Assembly (NCBI RefSeq): GCF_029688735.1
Contig: NZ_JARULD010000002.1
Location: 744,001 to 808,000 of the forward strand
Direction of reading: 5' to 3'
DNA length: 64,000 nucleotides
DNA from: Qipengyuania flavescens
GTDB lineage: Bacteria; Pseudomonadota; Alphaproteobacteria; Sphingomonadales; Sphingomonadaceae
The notes beneath the pieces were generated by a model. It was not told where the DNA came from and did not search any database. It saw nothing but the letters and a program-made list of their open reading frames with translations. Shown in pieces: positions 19,965 through 36,214 of this stretch (position 1 is the stretch's first letter; each line of letters begins with the position of its first letter). The position numbers were made by a program, and so were the translations under genes.

Positions 19965-21377
<1,413 letters not shown>

Positions 21378-21402
21378 CCGCCGCTTTGTCGAATTTGTAC
21401 TT

Positions 21403-21434
21403 GCAGTCCTGCAACAGCGCTGTTGTAAGACTGC
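21403..21434 (+). promoter_or_regulatory. 32-nt near-perfect palindrome between ntrC and ntrY
   Basis: Two 16-nt arms, 21403-21418 and 21419-21434, are reverse complements at 14 of 16 positions; in RNA one of the two exceptions is a G-U pair. The centre is CAGCGCTG. It begins 26 nt after the ntrC stop and ends 4 nt before the likely ntrY ATG. No poly-T follows, so it is not a standard terminator. It may be a dimeric-protein operator, an RNA processing site, or a hairpin limiting ntrY translation. Confidence 0.7.
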
Positions 21435-21438
21435 CACT

Positions 21439-23652
21439 ATGGCGAGCGCCGCTTCAGTCCAGCCCAATACCACACCGAGATGGTGGCGCAGGTTCGTGGT
21501 GACGTCACGCAGGGCCAATCTGGTCGGTTATCTCGAGATTTTTTTCGCGGTGGCTTTTCTTGTCATGGTCGCAAGTACGTGGGCGACTTTCACTGCGGCC
21601 CCGCCAAACGGGCAGCTTCTACCTAGCAGGCAAGTCGCAGGCCTGCTGATCGGCACGCTAATTCCCGCAATGGCCTTGCTCGTCCTCGCTGGACGGCGCC
21701 TGGCTCTGCGTCGAGCTGCAGGCAGTACCGCGCGGCTTCATGTGCGGCTCGTTTTCTTCTTTTCCATGATTGCCGCAGTGCCGACACTGCTGGTGGCTGG
21801 CTTCGCCGCCTTCCTCTTCCAGTCTGGGGTGGATTTCTGGTTCTCCGATAATTCGCGCGGTCTCATGGAAAATGCCAACCAGTTGGCCGAAAGCTATTAC
21901 GAAGAGAACCAGCTCGATCTTGCCAATGAAACCATTTCCATGGCGATGGACATGCGCTCAATCCTCGAGCGGGTATCGGTGACCGATCCCAATTTCGCCC
22001 TTGTCTACCAGTTCCAGGCGCAGCCGCGCGACGTCATCGAAAGCGCAATCCTGCAGGCGCTACCCGACTCCTCGATGCGGACTGCCGTCGCGTATGGCCT
22101 ATCCGAAGAAAGCAATCCTGTGCCCTTCGCCGAGGAAACACTTGGCGATATTCGCCGCGGGGAGCAGGTTGTCGTGCGCGGCACACCGGAGAGGATCGAG
22201 GCGGTGGCTCCGATCGATCGGCAAGCGGGCATCTATCTTTACACGGCGCGGAATGCCGAAGCGACCAGCTTCCGGAGCTGGGAAAGCGCGCGGTCGATTT
22301 CGAGCGCCTATGACGAACTCACCCGGCGCGCGCGAGCTCTCCAGCTGAGATTCAATCTTGCGCTCTTCTTCGTCAGTCTCGCGCTGGTCGGGCTGGCGGT
22401 CTGGTTCGCGCTGCGTTTTGCCGACAGGCAGGTCGAACCGCTCACCGACCTCATCGCAGCCGCTCGCAAGGTCGGCGCCGGAAACTTCGCACTGCGGGTC
22501 GAGGGCCGCACCGGGGCCGACGAGATCGGCCTACTCAATCGCGCGTTCAACCGGATGACGGCGCAGCTGGAAAAGCAGACCGATGCCTTGCTCGCTGCCA
22601 ACGATGAACTGGAAGAGCGGCGCAGCTTTATCGAAGCGGTGCTGGAATCCGTGAGTGCGGGCGTCATATCGATCGACCGCGACATGAACGTCTTGCTCAT
22701 GAACGCACCGGCTCAGACCATGCTGATGGAAGACGCAGCAGGCCAGCCACGTCCTGCCACATTACGCCAGCTGGCCCCTCAACTTGCAGTCATGGTCGAG
22801 GCGGGCCTTTCACAAGGGGTTGTGAGCCATTCGCGTCGAGGTGAACTGCTCACGCTCGCGGTCAAGATCGGCGAGGAGGCCGAGGGGCACGTCATAACCT
22901 TCGAAGACATTACCCGGCAACTGCTCGACCAGCGGCAGGCTGCGTGGTCCGATGTAGCGCGGCGGATTGCACACGAGATCAAGAACCCATTGACTCCGAT
23001 CCAGCTTGCTACTGAGCGCCTCAAGCGTCGGTATCGCAAGCAAATTCATGAAGATGGCGAGCTGTTCGATGAACTTACTAGTACCATCGTCCGCCAGGTC
23101 GGCGGTCTGCGCAAGATGGTGGACGAATTCTCCAGCTTCGCACGGTTGCCGAAGCCGGTGTTCCGCACCGAAGACGCGCTCGATCTTGTCCGCCAATCCC
23201 TCTTTCTCCAAGAGGTCGGCCATCAGGACGTGAATTATTCGCTTGTCGCCGATAGCGAAGGCCCAATCCGCATCCAGTGTGATCGCCACCAGTTCGGACA
23301 GGCGATTACCAATATTCTGAAGAACGCTTATGAAGCGACCGAGGCCAAAGCCCAGAATGCGGAGCCGGATTATCGCGGCAAGATCGTGGTCACGGTCGAA
23401 GAGGCCGAGGATTCGCTGCATGTCGCGATCGAGGACAATGGCATCGGTCTGCCGCAGGATCGCGATCGGATCCTCGAACCCTATGTGACGAACCGCGAGA
23501 AGGGCACCGGCCTGGGTCTCGCGATCGTGAACAAAATCGTCGAGGAACATGGCGGCGAGATGACCTTCTCCTCACTCGAAAGCGGGGGAACGCGCGTTGC
23601 GATGCGGTTCGCGCGCGATCCCCTCACAACGCCCGTGGGGGCCGCGCAATGA
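21439..23652 (+). CDS. ntrY: Membrane sensor histidine kinase NtrY
   Basis: A 737-residue membrane-bound sensor kinase paired with NtrX. Two N-terminal helices (about residues 30-50 and 65-85) are followed by another helix at FFFSMIAAVPTLLVAGFAAFL, an extracytoplasmic region, a further helix (FNLALFFVSLALVGLAVWFA), then HAMP, PAS (FIEAVLESVSAGVISIDRDM) and the kinase core with H box [18 protein letters not shown] and G boxes IEDNGIGLPQD and GTGLGLAIVNK. I chose ATG 21439; the frame is open upstream to a TTG inside ntrC, but that extension reads through the palindrome. No good ribosome binding site precedes the ATG, which fits control by the hairpin. Confidence 0.93.
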   Translation: MASAASVQPNTTPRWWRRFVVTSRRANLVGYLEIFFAVAFLVMVASTWATFTAAPPNGQLLPSRQVAGLLIGTLIPAMALLVLAGRRLALRRAAGSTARLHVRLVFFFSMIAAVPTLLVAGFAAFLFQSGVDFWFSDNSRGLMENANQLAESYYEENQLDLANETISMAMDMRSILERVSVTDPNFALVYQFQAQPRDVIESAILQALPDSSMRTAVAYGLSEESNPVPFAEETLGDIRRGEQVVVRGTPERIEAVAPIDRQAGIYLYTARNAEATSFRSWESARSISSAYDELTRRARALQLRFNLALFFVSLALVGLAVWFALRFADRQVEPLTDLIAAARKVGAGNFALRVEGRTGADEIGLLNRAFNRMTAQLEKQTDALLAANDELEERRSFIEAVLESVSAGVISIDRDMNVLLMNAPAQTMLMEDAAGQPRPATLRQLAPQLAVMVEAGLSQGVVSHSRRGELLTLAVKIGEEAEGHVITFEDITRQLLDQRQAAWSDVARRIAHEIKNPLTPIQLATERLKRRYRKQIHEDGELFDELTSTIVRQVGGLRKMVDEFSSFARLPKPVFRTEDALDLVRQSLFLQEVGHQDVNYSLVADSEGPIRIQCDRHQFGQAITNILKNAYEATEAKAQNAEPDYRGKIVVTVEEAEDSLHVAIEDNGIGLPQDRDRILEPYVTNREKGTGLGLAIVNKIVEEHGGEMTFSSLESGGTRVAMRFARDPLTTPVGAAQ

Positions 23653-23675
23653 TACATAGCAAAGGGTAGCAGCCA

Positions 23676-25061
23676 ATGGCGTTAGACATCCTGATCGTCG
23701 ACGACGAACGCGACATTCGCGATCTTGTAGCCGGCGTGCTGAGCGACGAAGGCTACGAGTGCCGGACCGCCGGCGACAGTTCCAGCGCGCTGACGCAGGT
23801 CGACGAACGCCGGCCCAGCCTAGTCCTGCTGGACGTCTGGCTCCACGGGAGCCCCATGGATGGCCTCGAAGTGCTGGACGAGATCAAGAAGCGCGAACCC
23901 GATCTGCCGGTCATCGTGTTCTCCGGCCATGGCAATATCGATACGGCAGTAAGCGCGGTAAGCCGTGGGGCGGTCGACTTCATCGAGAAGCCGTTCGAAG
24001 CCGAAAGGCTTTTGCACCTCGTCGGGAGGGCAACCGAGACCGAACGCCTGCGTCGTGAGAACAGCAGGCTGCGCGAAGGGATGGTCCAGAACGGCGAATT
24101 CACCGGGAATTCGGTGGCGATCAATGCCGTGAGAGCCACTCTGAAGCGTGTGGCCAGCACGGGCAGCCGCGTACTCATCAGCGGTCCGGCCGGTACCGGA
24201 AAGGAGGTAGCTGCGCGCTTGCTGCACAGCTGGAGCCCGCGCGCCGACAAGGCGTTCGTCATCGTGAACTCGGCACGCATAACTCCTGAGCGGTTCGAAG
24301 AGGAGTTGTTCGGGGAGGAAGCTGACGGCAAGCTGGTGCGACCGGGGCTGCTCGAGATGGCCGACGGCGGTACGCTCTATCTCGACGAAGTGGCGGACAT
24401 GCCGCTCTCGACCCAAGCCCGTATTCTTCGGGTACTGACCGAACAGAGTTTCGTGAGGGTAGGGGGCACGCGCCAGATCGGTGTTGATGTGCGGGTTGTT
24501 TCCTCGACGGCCCGTGATCTCGAGAAGGAAATGTCGGAGAAACGCTTCCGCGAAGATCTGTTCTACCGGTTGAATGTCGTTCCAGTGGAGGTGCCGTCGC
24601 TCTCGGAGCGGCGCGACGATATCCCCTCGCTGTCAGACACATTCTTCACGCATTACGCGGCGGAACAGGGTATCCGTCCTCCGACGATCAGCGAAGAAGC
24701 GATGGCGGCGCTTCAGGCTTACGATTGGCCCGGCAATGTCCGCCAGCTTCGTAATGTCGTCGAGCGCACCGTTATCCTCACCCCCCGCGAACAGCTCGAA
24801 CAAATCGAGGCTGAAATGCTTCCCGAAGAAGTACTGGGCGGTAAGCTCGGCGGAAATGGCGGGGTCGCAGCCCTGATGGGGTCGCCGCTGCGCGAGGCGC
24901 GCGAGAATTTCGAGCGTGAATATCTGGCGATCCAGATCCGGCGCTTCTCCGGCAATATTTCCAAGACTGCCAACTTCATCGGCATGGAGCGGTCGGCCCT
25001 TCACCGGAAACTCAAGTTGCTCGGAATGGCGGACAAGAAACCGGCGTCTGGTAAGGAATAG
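23676..25061 (+). CDS. ntrX: Response regulator NtrX
   Basis: A 461-residue partner of NtrY. The receiver has Asp53 in LVLLDVWLHG; the AAA+ domain has Walker A GPAGTGKE, Walker B TLYLDEVAD and FREDLFYRLNV; the C-terminal Fis-type helix-turn-helix is SGNISKTANFIGMERSALHRKL. The GAFTGA sigma-54 contact loop is absent: after ELFG the sequence is EEADGKLVRPGLLEMADGG. This is typical of alphaproteobacterial NtrX and suggests it does not activate sigma-54 promoters in the usual way. It lies 23 nt after ntrY and 164 nt before hfq. Confidence 0.95.
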   Translation: MALDILIVDDERDIRDLVAGVLSDEGYECRTAGDSSSALTQVDERRPSLVLLDVWLHGSPMDGLEVLDEIKKREPDLPVIVFSGHGNIDTAVSAVSRGAVDFIEKPFEAERLLHLVGRATETERLRRENSRLREGMVQNGEFTGNSVAINAVRATLKRVASTGSRVLISGPAGTGKEVAARLLHSWSPRADKAFVIVNSARITPERFEEELFGEEADGKLVRPGLLEMADGGTLYLDEVADMPLSTQARILRVLTEQSFVRVGGTRQIGVDVRVVSSTARDLEKEMSEKRFREDLFYRLNVVPVEVPSLSERRDDIPSLSDTFFTHYAAEQGIRPPTISEEAMAALQAYDWPGNVRQLRNVVERTVILTPREQLEQIEAEMLPEEVLGGKLGGNGGVAALMGSPLREARENFEREYLAIQIRRFSGNISKTANFIGMERSALHRKLKLLGMADKKPASGKE

Positions 25062-25180: not shown

Positions 25181-25225
25181 AGACTGCGGACCCCCTAAGG
25201 GTTTGCCAACAACGGAGAGACAGAT

Positions 25226-25765
25226 ATGTCCGAACGAACCCTTTCGGCGCGTCCGCGCCCAGAAAAACCTTCAAGCGACAGCGGGGGACAGCGCAAAGGC
25301 AATCTTCAGGATGCCTTCCTCAACCTGCTGCGCAAGAACAAGACCCCGGTCACGATGTTCCTCGTGAAGGGGGTGAAGCTCCAGGGTATCGTGACCTGGT
25401 TCGACAATTTCTCGATCCTGCTGCGCCGCGACGGCCAGTCGCAGCTGGTCTATAAGCACGCGATCAGCACGATCATGCCGGCACAACCCGTCGATGCAGA
25501 ACAGTTTGCGAGCACCAACTCAAGCGCCAAGCAGCGTTTGCTGCAGGATGTATTCCTAACACGCGTACGCCAGGCTGAAGCGCAGGTGACGATGTTCCTC
25601 GTCAATGGCGTGATGCTGCAAGGCAAAATCGCGGCTTACGACCTGTTCTGCATGCTCCTGGAGCGTGACGGCTACGTTCAGCTGGCCTATAAACATGCGG
25701 TATCCACCATCCAGCCAGCCACCCCGGTCGATCTGACCGAGGAGTGGGACGAGGACGACAGCTGA
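25226..25765 (+). CDS. hfq: Tandem (two-domain) RNA chaperone Hfq
   Basis: A 179-residue protein containing two complete Hfq/Sm domains in one chain. Domain 1 (about residues 25-89) is canonical: [35 protein letters not shown] and the YKHAISTI Sm2 motif (Tyr76-His78). Domain 2 (about 104-168) keeps [19 protein letters not shown] and YKHAVSTI (Tyr155-His157) but has Met130 where domain 1 has Lys51, and RQAE in place of the basic rim patch. An acidic tail (EEWDEDD) follows. Ordinary Hfq is a hexamer of single domains of 70-100 residues, so this should form a ring from three chains. It lies in the Ntr operon, where hfq normally sits; a purine-rich GGAGAG site precedes the ATG. Confidence 0.95.
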
Positions 25766-27081
25766 GTTTCGACGACGACCTGATGGGTGAGGTGTCGCGC
25801 GGCGCGCGGGCTCTCGTCGTGTGCCCTGACATCAGAGGCATGGTCTACGATCTCGATGCAGACTCGCGTCTGGCCGAGGCGGAGGGGCTCGCGCTCGCGA
25901 TCGGCATTATCGTGGCGGAAAGCTTCGTCCTGCCGGTCAGGGAGGTGCGTCCAAACCTGCTGTTCGGCGCAGGCCAGGTAGAAAACATCCGCATCGCCTG
26001 CGAACAGGACGAAGCTGAACTGGTGGTGGTCGATGGCGCCTTGAGCCCGATCCAGCAGCGCAATCTTGAGGAAAAGCTCGAGCGCAAGGTCATCGACCGC
26101 ACCGGCCTGATCCTCGAGATTTTCGGCGAACGTGCGGCCACTGCCGAAGGTCGCCTGCAAGTCGAACTAGCCCATCTTGACTACCAGCAGAGCCGTCTTG
26201 TGCGAAGCTGGACCCACCTCGAGCGGCAGCGCGGCGGTTTCGGATTCCTGGGCGGCCCGGGCGAGACCCAGATCGAGGCCGACCGTCGGATGATCCGCCA
26301 GCGCATGGGACGTTTGCGCAAGGAACTGGAGCAGGTCCGAAAAACGCGCGGCCTTCATCGCGAACGTCGCGAACGTGCACCCTGGCCGGTGATCGCTCTC
26401 GTCGGTTACACTAACGCCGGCAAGTCCACACTGTTCAATCGCCTGACCGGGGCCGAAGTGATGGCCGAAGACCTGCTTTTCGCCACGCTGGATCCGACGA
26501 TGCGCGCCATCGCCTTGCCGGGCGTGGAGAAGGCGATCTTGTCGGATACTGTCGGCTTCATTTCCGATCTGCCGACACAACTGGTGGCGGCGTTCCGCGC
26601 CACGCTGGAGGAGGTGACCGCAGCGGACGTCATCTGCCATGTGCGCGACATGTCGAATCCGTCGAGCGATGCGCAAAAGAAGCAGGTGCTGCAGGTTCTC
26701 GCCGAATTGGGTGTAGTAGGCGAGCAGGGCGAGGGGAGTGAAATCCCGATCCTTGAGGTGTGGAACAAGCTGGATCTTCTATCTAATGAGGAGCGAGCCG
26801 AACTCGAGGAAGTTGCCTCCGCAGACAAGGACGTGGTCGCTATTTCCGCGCTGACCGGGGAAGGGATCAATGACTTCCTTTCTTGCGTCGATGCCATCCT
26901 GACGGCAGGATCACGCGAGCACGAGATCACGCTGGAAGCCGACGAGGGGAAGGCTCTCGCCTGGCTGCATCAGCACGGCCATGTTCTCTCGGACGAGCAG
27001 GAGGGCGATAACGGGCGGCGCAGTCTGGTCGTGAAACTGTCCGATAAGGAATACGGACGCTTTCAAAGTCTGCAGGACTAA
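25744..27081 (+). CDS. hflX: GTPase HflX
   Basis: Ribosome-associated GTPase that splits stalled or heat-damaged 70S ribosomes. The N-terminal HflX domain ([42 protein letters not shown]) and the glycine-rich [22 protein letters not shown] segment precede the G domain with G1 [10 protein letters not shown]3 DTVGFI and G4 NKLD. The start is uncertain: GTG 25744 gives 445 residues and overlaps hfq by 22 nt, whereas ATG 25783 gives 432 residues starting 17 nt after the hfq stop. It is convergent with mazG, their stops interleaving in 4 nt. Confidence 0.95.
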
Positions 27082-36124: not shown

Positions 36125-36214
36125 GGACAGGTGGCAGAGCGGTTGAATGCACCGGTCTTGAAAACCGGCAAGGGTGCAAGCCCTTCGTGGGTTCGAATCC
36201 CACCCTGTCCGCCA
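36125..36214 (+). tRNA. tRNA-Ser (anticodon UGA)
   Basis: A type II tRNA with encoded CCA. The acceptor stem pairs GGACAGG (36125-36131) with CCTGTCC (36204-36210), discriminator G36211 and CCA 36212-36214. The anticodon arm CCGG-TCTTGAAAA-CCGG has TGA as anticodon; a long variable arm (AGGGTGCAAGCCCT) and the T loop GGTTCGAATCC are present. It reads UCA and other UCN serine codons. Confidence 0.97.

What the first reader, a model, noticed from the sequence alone, without database searches (positions are those of the whole stretch)
25226..25765. Double-domain Hfq with an intact first half and a diverged second half
One open frame encodes two full Hfq Sm folds joined by a linker of about 15 residues. 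Both keep the YKH RNA-binding motif. The second half lost the lysine of the KLQG strand (Met130) and most of the basic rim, and ends in an acidic tail. A ring would need three chains with alternating domains, giving a pseudo-hexamer with asymmetric distal and rim faces. I recall tandem Hfq in sphingomonads such as Novosphingobium, so the fusion itself may be known; its functional asymmetry seems little studied.
Basis: partly seen in the sequence, partly recalled or inferred. Interest (0 to 1): 0.72.

Follow-up and report, generated by a model that had tools for sequence, protein, structure and literature searches.

The report
Two-in-one Hfq with unlike halves
This bacterium's Hfq, a ring-shaped protein that helps small RNAs find their targets, is made as two fused copies whose second half has changed in the same way in nearly all the relatives examined, which suggests that the usual six-fold ring has become a lopsided ring of three double units.

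Summary
Confirmed: window 25226-25765 (+) is one 179-aa frame with two complete Hfq domains, the only Hfq found in its genome. The fusion itself is known: NCBIfam has a double-Hfq model, passed here at 304.7 bits (cut-off 270), and a 2010 Zymomonas paper reported it and asked whether three chains make the ring. What I add is spread, origin and consistency. In the order sample 225 of 236 family genomes have two Hfq matches (my count); in the class sample 5 of 289 genomes pass the tandem cut-off, all of the window's family. hflX follows hfq in 154 of 155 distinct loci, and on an HflX tree the tandem needs one change. In 114 tandems outside one divergent genus, domain 1 has Lys28 (114); domain 2 has Met31 (114), Gln63 (114) and Leu41 (110), fewer basic rim residues, and mean net charge -1.7 against +4.1. 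AlphaFold gives the single chain pTM 0.79. Most likely: a three-chain pseudo-hexamer with alternating stronger and weaker RNA-binding subunits. The ring is inferred, not shown.

The parts
25214..25219 (+). likely Shine-Dalgarno GGAGAG, 6 nt before the ATG
   Evidence: sequence printed
25226..25765 (+). tandem hfq gene, 179 aa, the only Hfq found in the genome
25304..25492 (+). domain 1 (residues 27-89): Lys48 = E. coli position 28, Lys51 = 31, Asn61 = 41, Met84 = 63; rim R36 K37 K39
25493..25540 (+). linker between the two Pfam matches (residues 90-105)
   Evidence: counted from P64 to L7 the stretch is 20-22 residues in 111 of 114 tandems
25541..25729 (+). domain 2 (residues 106-168): Met130 = position 31, Leu140 = 41, Gln163 = 63; rim R115 Q116 E118
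25739..25762 (+). acidic C-terminal tip EEWDEDDS
   Evidence: net charge of the last 10 residues -2 to -8 in 114 of 114 tandems
25744..27081 (+). hflX directly downstream (longest frame from GTG 25744 overlaps the end of hfq; the true start may lie further in)

Best explanation
A functional Hfq RNA chaperone made as a tandem of two Sm domains. SUPPORTED by the data here: in the sample the tandem replaced the ancestral single hfq before hflX once, within the window's family (Sphingomonadaceae in the GTDB sense, by its named relatives); the second domain carries a nearly uniform set of changes, and both domains are under purifying selection. INFERRED: the tandem arose by duplication in place; each chain supplies two neighbouring subunits of the Sm ring, so three chains close a pseudo-hexamer with alternating subunits. 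Domain 1 keeps the basic rim (positions 16/17/19), the proximal amide at 41 and the distal Lys31, and has gained Lys28; domain 2 keeps the core of the U-pocket but lacks the amide at 41, the distal Lys31 and much of the rim charge. Lysines at positions 28 and 31 would still number six per ring but stand as three pairs. In Caulobacter Hfq the acidic tip of one subunit sits on the basic rim of its neighbour (PMC6561178, passages); in the alternating ring domain 2's acidic tail would face domain 1's basic rim, while domain 1's tail has become a near-neutral linker toward the rim that lost charge. Annealing would then occur mainly at three sites per ring, gated by three tails.
For: Only Hfq gene found, two domains in one frame. 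114 distinct tandems: D1 K28 114, K31 113, N41 114, rim 16/17/19 all basic 114; D2 M31 114, Q63 114, L41 110; D2 has 0 basic residues at 16/17/19 in 18, 1 in 68, 2 in 26, 3 in 2; 29 of 29 distinct single-domain relatives have N28, K31, N41, M63 and three basic rim residues. Mean net charge D1 +4.1, D2 -1.7, singles +4.0; linker mean net charge +0.5, range -3 to +2, whole tail mean -6.3. Monomer-interface residues named in PMC11770335 (F11, L12, I24, L26, V54, I59, V62; passages) are hydrophobic in D2 in 113-114 of 114. Median dN/dS 0.12 (D1) and 0.18 (D2) over 2374 of 6441 pairs. AlphaFold on 82 sequences: mean pLDDT 89.3, pTM 0.79, pLDDT 96-98 in both domain cores; two domains free to move would be expected to give a lower pTM (inference). 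Tail on the neighbouring rim. Roles of Q8, position 41, F42, K56, H57: passages of PMC10628458. K31A and R16A lower RNA-RNA chimeras in vivo in E. coli: passages of PMC12262471.
Against: No coordinates or multimer prediction were available, so the domain contact was not examined, and AlphaFold may have carried over known Hfq rings. No biochemical data on a tandem Hfq ring appeared in my searches. D2 keeps Arg16, whose loss is the most harmful to pairing in E. coli, in 90 of 114, and 24 of 114 keep Lys17, so its rim is weakened, not dead, and part of the loss may be drift. In simulations of Pseudomonas Hfq the contacts named for N28 and K31 are of the backbone (PMC8121710, passages), and K31A was mild in earlier E. 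coli reporter tests and on total RNA, so the swaps at 28 and 31 may matter less than I suppose. The loss of an acidic tip on D1 may simply follow from its becoming a linker. In Zymomonas two sRNAs did not bind Hfq in vitro and the authors doubt that it is a strong general chaperone there (PMC7064620, passages). In the divergent genus g12 the pattern is not kept: M31 in 5 of 12, L41 in 0 of 12. Four of the 114 lack L41 and one lacks K31 in D1.
Confidence: 0.7

Rival explanations
1. Six chains form a homo-hexamer of domain 1, and the six copies of domain 2 hang outside or form a second, stacked ring.
For: A stretch of 20-22 residues from P64 to L7 could reach out of the ring; D2 keeps its interface and U-pocket residues and so could form a ring of its own.
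Against: pTM 0.79 suggests that the two domains are packed in a fixed way within one chain (inference); a near-neutral D1 linker goes with a D2 rim of reduced charge, and an acidic D2 tail with a basic D1 rim, as expected of neighbours in one ring.
Confidence: 0.15
2. Domain 2 is mainly a structural spacer that drifts under relaxed constraint; the asymmetry has no function of its own.
For: D2 is less conserved than D1 (mean pairwise identity 0.78 against 0.88; dN/dS higher in D2 in 79% of the 2374 pairs); its rim composition varies between lineages; in genus g12 the pattern has dissolved.
Against: M31 and Q63 stand in 114 of 114 and L41 in 110, while Q8, F42, Y55, K56 and H57 are invariant in D2; plain drift would not be expected to hold new residues so uniformly.
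Confidence: 0.12
3. The halves act apart, through internal translation start, frameshift or cleavage in the linker.
For: None found, beyond a linker of lower predicted order (pLDDT block means 78 and 82).
Against: One open frame in 130 of 130 tandem loci; a start codon with a Shine-Dalgarno-like motif between the domains in 3 of 114, while the same crude motif test finds one before domain 1 in 71 of 114 (the stretches scanned differ in length).
Confidence: 0.03

Closest known systems
NCBIfam NF010691 / PRK14091, double-domain RNA chaperone Hfq; Zymomonas mobilis ZMO0347
   Same: Two Hfq Sm domains in one chain; the window protein passes the curated cut-off (304.7 against 270 bits). PMC2877685 (passages) reports two Sm-like domains in ZMO0347 and says that six other Sphingomonadales species share this, and asks whether three proteins form the ring.
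   Different: The passages read do not describe a shared residue asymmetry, a single origin or basal single-domain lineages. ZMO0347 itself was not retrieved here.
Caulobacter crescentus Hfq (PDB 6gwk)
   Same: Best solved relative of domain 1 by sequence and first by Foldseek for the model (82% identity over 65 columns); short acidic tail.
   Different: One domain per chain; a hexamer of identical subunits.
Escherichia coli Hfq
   Same: Same fold and most RNA-contact residues.
   Different: Single domain, longer tail, no alternation.
Eukaryotic Sm/LSm heteroheptamers (general knowledge; also described in passages of PMC2877685)
   Same: Duplication turning an Sm ring into one with unlike subunits.
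   Different: Separate genes and seven subunits there; one fused gene and probably six domains here.
Genomes with two unlinked hfq genes (G344, G601, G726, G742, G745)
   Same: Two Hfq domains per genome.
   Different: Separate genes at different places, not a fusion. A paralogue called hfq2 in Burkholderia is named in the title of PMC3474761 (listing); whether any of these five genomes is a Burkholderia was not tested.

Membership tests
Hfq (PF17209) | profile match above the curated cut-off | tested here: met
   two stretches; 108.7 and 84.4 bits against 27
Hfq (PF17209) | YKH motif and proximal residues Q8, F42, K56, H57 | tested here: met
   both halves
Hfq (PF17209) | Hfq fold: helix and five strands | tested here: met
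   predicted twice in the chain; Foldseek to 6gwk over 65 columns
Hfq (PF17209) | hexameric ring | not testable with these tools
   no multimer prediction; single-chain pTM 0.79
Hfq (PF17209) | sRNA-mRNA annealing activity | not testable with these tools
   needs an experiment
Tandem Hfq, NF010691/PRK14091 | whole-length match above 270 bits | tested here: met
   304.7 bits, residues 13-178 to model positions 9-175 of 176

The most novel reading that the evidence does not exclude
A clade of sphingomonads turned a homomeric bacterial Sm ring into an obligate alternating one by fusing two gene copies: a three-fold ring in which domain 1 gives the annealing rims and the lysine-rich distal sites, six distal lysines stand as three pairs, and three acidic tails each gate the one basic rim next to them. 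It would be an independent bacterial parallel to the heteromeric Sm/LSm rings, with the order of subunits set by covalent fusion.
Probability: 0.38. Interest if true: 0.72.

Novelty: new member of a known kind. Interest (0 to 1): 0.5.

Why it matters
How many of the six Hfq subunits need a rim, a distal site and a tail is hard to test in E. coli because all six are identical. A natural three-plus-three ring with fixed subunit order, if that is what this is, makes it testable. It also offers a case, with single-domain relatives still alive in the same family, of a homomeric Sm ring on the way to unlike subunits.

Tried and rejected
Frameshift, internal start and pseudogene were considered and rejected. 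Repeated origin or frequent loss of the fusion was rejected for the sample: one change on the HflX tree (43 of 130 tandem loci and 29 distinct singles used; quick method; SH-aLRT 94 for the tandem side, just under the program's star; no bootstrap). The order of the family's single-domain lineages and the tandem side is not resolved there (open forks), and the root split has support 53. Counts of changes alone cannot tell gain from loss.

Tandem Hfq elsewhere was looked for. In the class sample the cut-off is passed by 5 of 289 genomes, all of the window's family; the other 284 do not pass (24 genomes without a match are not listed by name). The cut-off is strict, so a very different tandem would be missed. 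In the phylum sample (249 genomes) four genomes outside the family list two matches (G601, G726, G742, G745); these, and G344 of the class, carry them at unlinked places; G540, with two matches to the tandem model, has one Pfam match. G001 of the order has a second, partial match on another contig, not a tandem.

The domain tree (27 of 126 distinct tandems, 29 singles, one reference row) puts all 27 D2 on one side (SH-aLRT 88), but D1 needs two changes; 65 columns and long branches make it weak, and it is used only as support. The dN/dS pairs are not independent, and only pairs with dS of 0.1-1.2 in both domains were kept (2374 of 6441).

Paper searches: (one search found none; several listings were cut at 20 or 40 rows). 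No paper on domain-by-domain asymmetry of tandem Hfq appeared in what was listed; most subscription journals are not held. The find calls on PMC7546472 (the terms do not occur) and PMC9797736 and PMC5770649 (passages) showed nothing on the two domains. PMC10725011 names Hfq only in its references. PMC11784078 (passages) reports that extra copies of the native hfq help Novosphingobium pentaromativorans in the cold.

The VIA-align library was not available, so no second fold comparison was made. The second structure job was not used: a chain of joined copies would be a changed sequence.

Full report
OBSERVATION. Window 25226-25765 (+) is one open frame of 179 residues with a Shine-Dalgarno-like GGAGAG six bases before the ATG. 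It holds two full Hfq domains by Pfam, at window 25304-25492 (108.7 bits) and 25541-25729 (84.4 bits); these are the only Hfq matches found in the 2.98-Mb assembly, which is 99.98% complete. The two halves are 59% identical. YKH stands in both, the Lys of KLQG is Met130 in the second, and the protein ends in an acidic tip.

WHAT IT IS. NCBIfam names this architecture (NF010691, PRK14091). The five closest of the 80 named loci kept are Erythrobacter and Qipengyuania (83-87% identity in the best segment); further ones bear the names Tsuneonella, Novosphingobium, Sphingobium, Sphingomonas, Sphingorhabdus and others (more relatives were found than the 80 kept). Upstream lies a sigma-54-type response regulator, downstream hflX.

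SPREAD AND ORIGIN. Of 297 genomes of the order 296 have an Hfq match. By my count of that table 236 are of the window's family: 225 with two matches and 11 with one (seven genus codes: g7, g13, g18, g28, g39, g44, g47). Of the 61 others one, G001, lists two, and its second is a fragment on another contig. That the two matches lie in one frame was verified only for the loci fetched (130 tandem loci). In the class sample the tandem model's cut-off is passed by 5 of 289 genomes, all of the family. hflX follows hfq on the same strand within 500 nt in 125 of 126 distinct tandem and 29 of 29 distinct single loci; the remaining tandem locus holds no hflX in its stretch. On an HflX tree of 72 rows (43 tandem, 9 family singles, 20 other singles) the tandem needs one change, with all single-domain lineages outside it (SH-aLRT 94; inner order open). 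The simplest reading is one tandem duplication in place within the family.

THE ASYMMETRY. Of 126 distinct tandems, 114 outside genus g12 were counted, in E. coli numbering. Domain 1: K28 in 114 (single-domain relatives: N28 in 29 of 29), K31 113, W38 114, N41 114, M63 112, and all three rim positions 16/17/19 basic in 114. Domain 2: N28 113, M31 114, A38 98, L41 110, Q63 114; basic residues at 16/17/19: none in 18, one in 68, two in 26, three in 2; Arg16 itself is kept in 90; the extra residue before position 47 is E in 93 where domain 1 and the singles have R. Domain 2 keeps Q8, F42, R47, Q52, Y55, K56, H57, S60 and T61 in 114 of 114. So the second domain did not lose its RNA pocket; it lost charge and the amide at 41. 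M31+L41+Q63+N28 stand together in 110 of 114, and K28+K31+N41+M63 in domain 1 in 111 of 114; the exceptions at K31 and L41 are L083, L086, L099 and L152. The nine distinct single-domain sequences of the same family read N, K, W, N, M at 28, 31, 38, 41, 63, so the set arose with or after the fusion. In genus g12 (12 sequences) it is not kept: domain 2 has M31 in 5, L41 in none, Q63 in 6.

CHARGE AND TAIL. Mean net charge is +4.1 in domain 1, -1.7 in domain 2 and +4.0 in singles; the last ten residues are net negative in 114 of 114; the stretch from P64 of domain 1 to L7 of domain 2 is 20-22 residues in 111 of 114. That stretch has mean net charge +0.5 (range -3 to +2), the tail after domain 2 -6.3. 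Passages of PMC6561178 describe, for Caulobacter Hfq, the acidic tip of one subunit lying on basic rim residues of the adjacent one. In an alternating ring the tail of domain 2 meets domain 1 of the next chain, whose rim is fully basic, and the former tail of domain 1 runs to domain 2, whose rim has lost charge. This pairing is the best sequence argument for alternation; it is suggestive only, since a linker could lose its acidic tip for other reasons.

SELECTION AND FOLD. Both domains are under purifying selection: median dN/dS 0.12 and 0.18 over 2374 of 6441 pairs. AlphaFold with 82 sequences gives mean pLDDT 89.3 and pTM 0.79, with the helix and five strands of Hfq twice. Foldseek ranks Caulobacter Hfq first, TM-score 0.96 by target length over 65 columns. 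Among the 35 distinct solved sequences matched, each gives one matched stretch and the longest has 114 residues, so none is a tandem.

FUNCTION. Passages of PMC10628458 list the proximal contacts (Q8, position 41, F42, K56, H57), distal contacts (Q52, T61, N28, L26, I30, Y25, L32) and the rim R16/R17/R19. PMC12262471 (preprint, passages) reports that K31A cuts in vivo RNA-RNA chimeras almost four-fold, with little effect on total RNA, and that R16A nearly abolishes chimeras. By these roles domain 2 should hold distal RNA and anneal less well than domain 1, though it usually keeps Arg16. Against a strong role of the swaps at 28 and 31, simulations of Pseudomonas Hfq name backbone contacts there (PMC8121710, passages). 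That the tandem works as a chaperone is plausible but not shown here: a Zymomonas hfq mutant is sensitive to inhibitors (PMC2877685, passages), two Zymomonas sRNAs did not bind Hfq in vitro (PMC7064620, passages), and the SuhB sRNA of Sphingopyxis granuli TFA is reported as Hfq-dependent (PMC6563040, passages), though I did not check TFA's hfq.

VERDICT. The protein is a new member of a known double-domain family. Its shared asymmetry, the single origin in the sample and the matching of tail and rim are not described in the passages or listings that I saw (searches), and make the three-chain pseudo-hexamer a sharp, testable proposal.

Noticed in passing
L124-L132, L137, L139, L140 (genus code g12): In one genus of the family with small genomes (2.1-2.9 Mb) both Hfq halves are strongly diverged in several species (down to 72 bits for half 1 and 45 bits for half 2); of 12 sequences domain 1 has Gln for His57 in 4, and domain 2 keeps M31 in 5 and L41 in none. 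Hfq may be changing its job there.
   Followed up: partly
L113-L123: Some genera of the same family keep a single-domain hfq before hflX: natural 'before' controls for the fusion.
   Followed up: yes
window 25744-25765: The longest hflX frame starts at GTG 25744 inside the end of hfq; the true start may be downstream, but the two genes are tightly packed and may be translated together.
   Followed up: no
window 19965-25061: Two response-regulator-like genes with a sensor-kinase-like gene (21331-23652) between them lie upstream of hfq, resembling ntrC-ntrY-ntrX (names recalled; only the second regulator was scanned; the others are judged from the frames).
   Followed up: no
window 36125-36211 (+): The only Rfam match at gathering threshold in the window is one tRNA gene; no sRNA family of Rfam was found.
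   Followed up: no
genomes G344, G601, G726, G742, G745: Genomes of other families carry two separate, unlinked Hfq genes, the second scoring lower: a different way of diversifying Hfq.
   Followed up: partly
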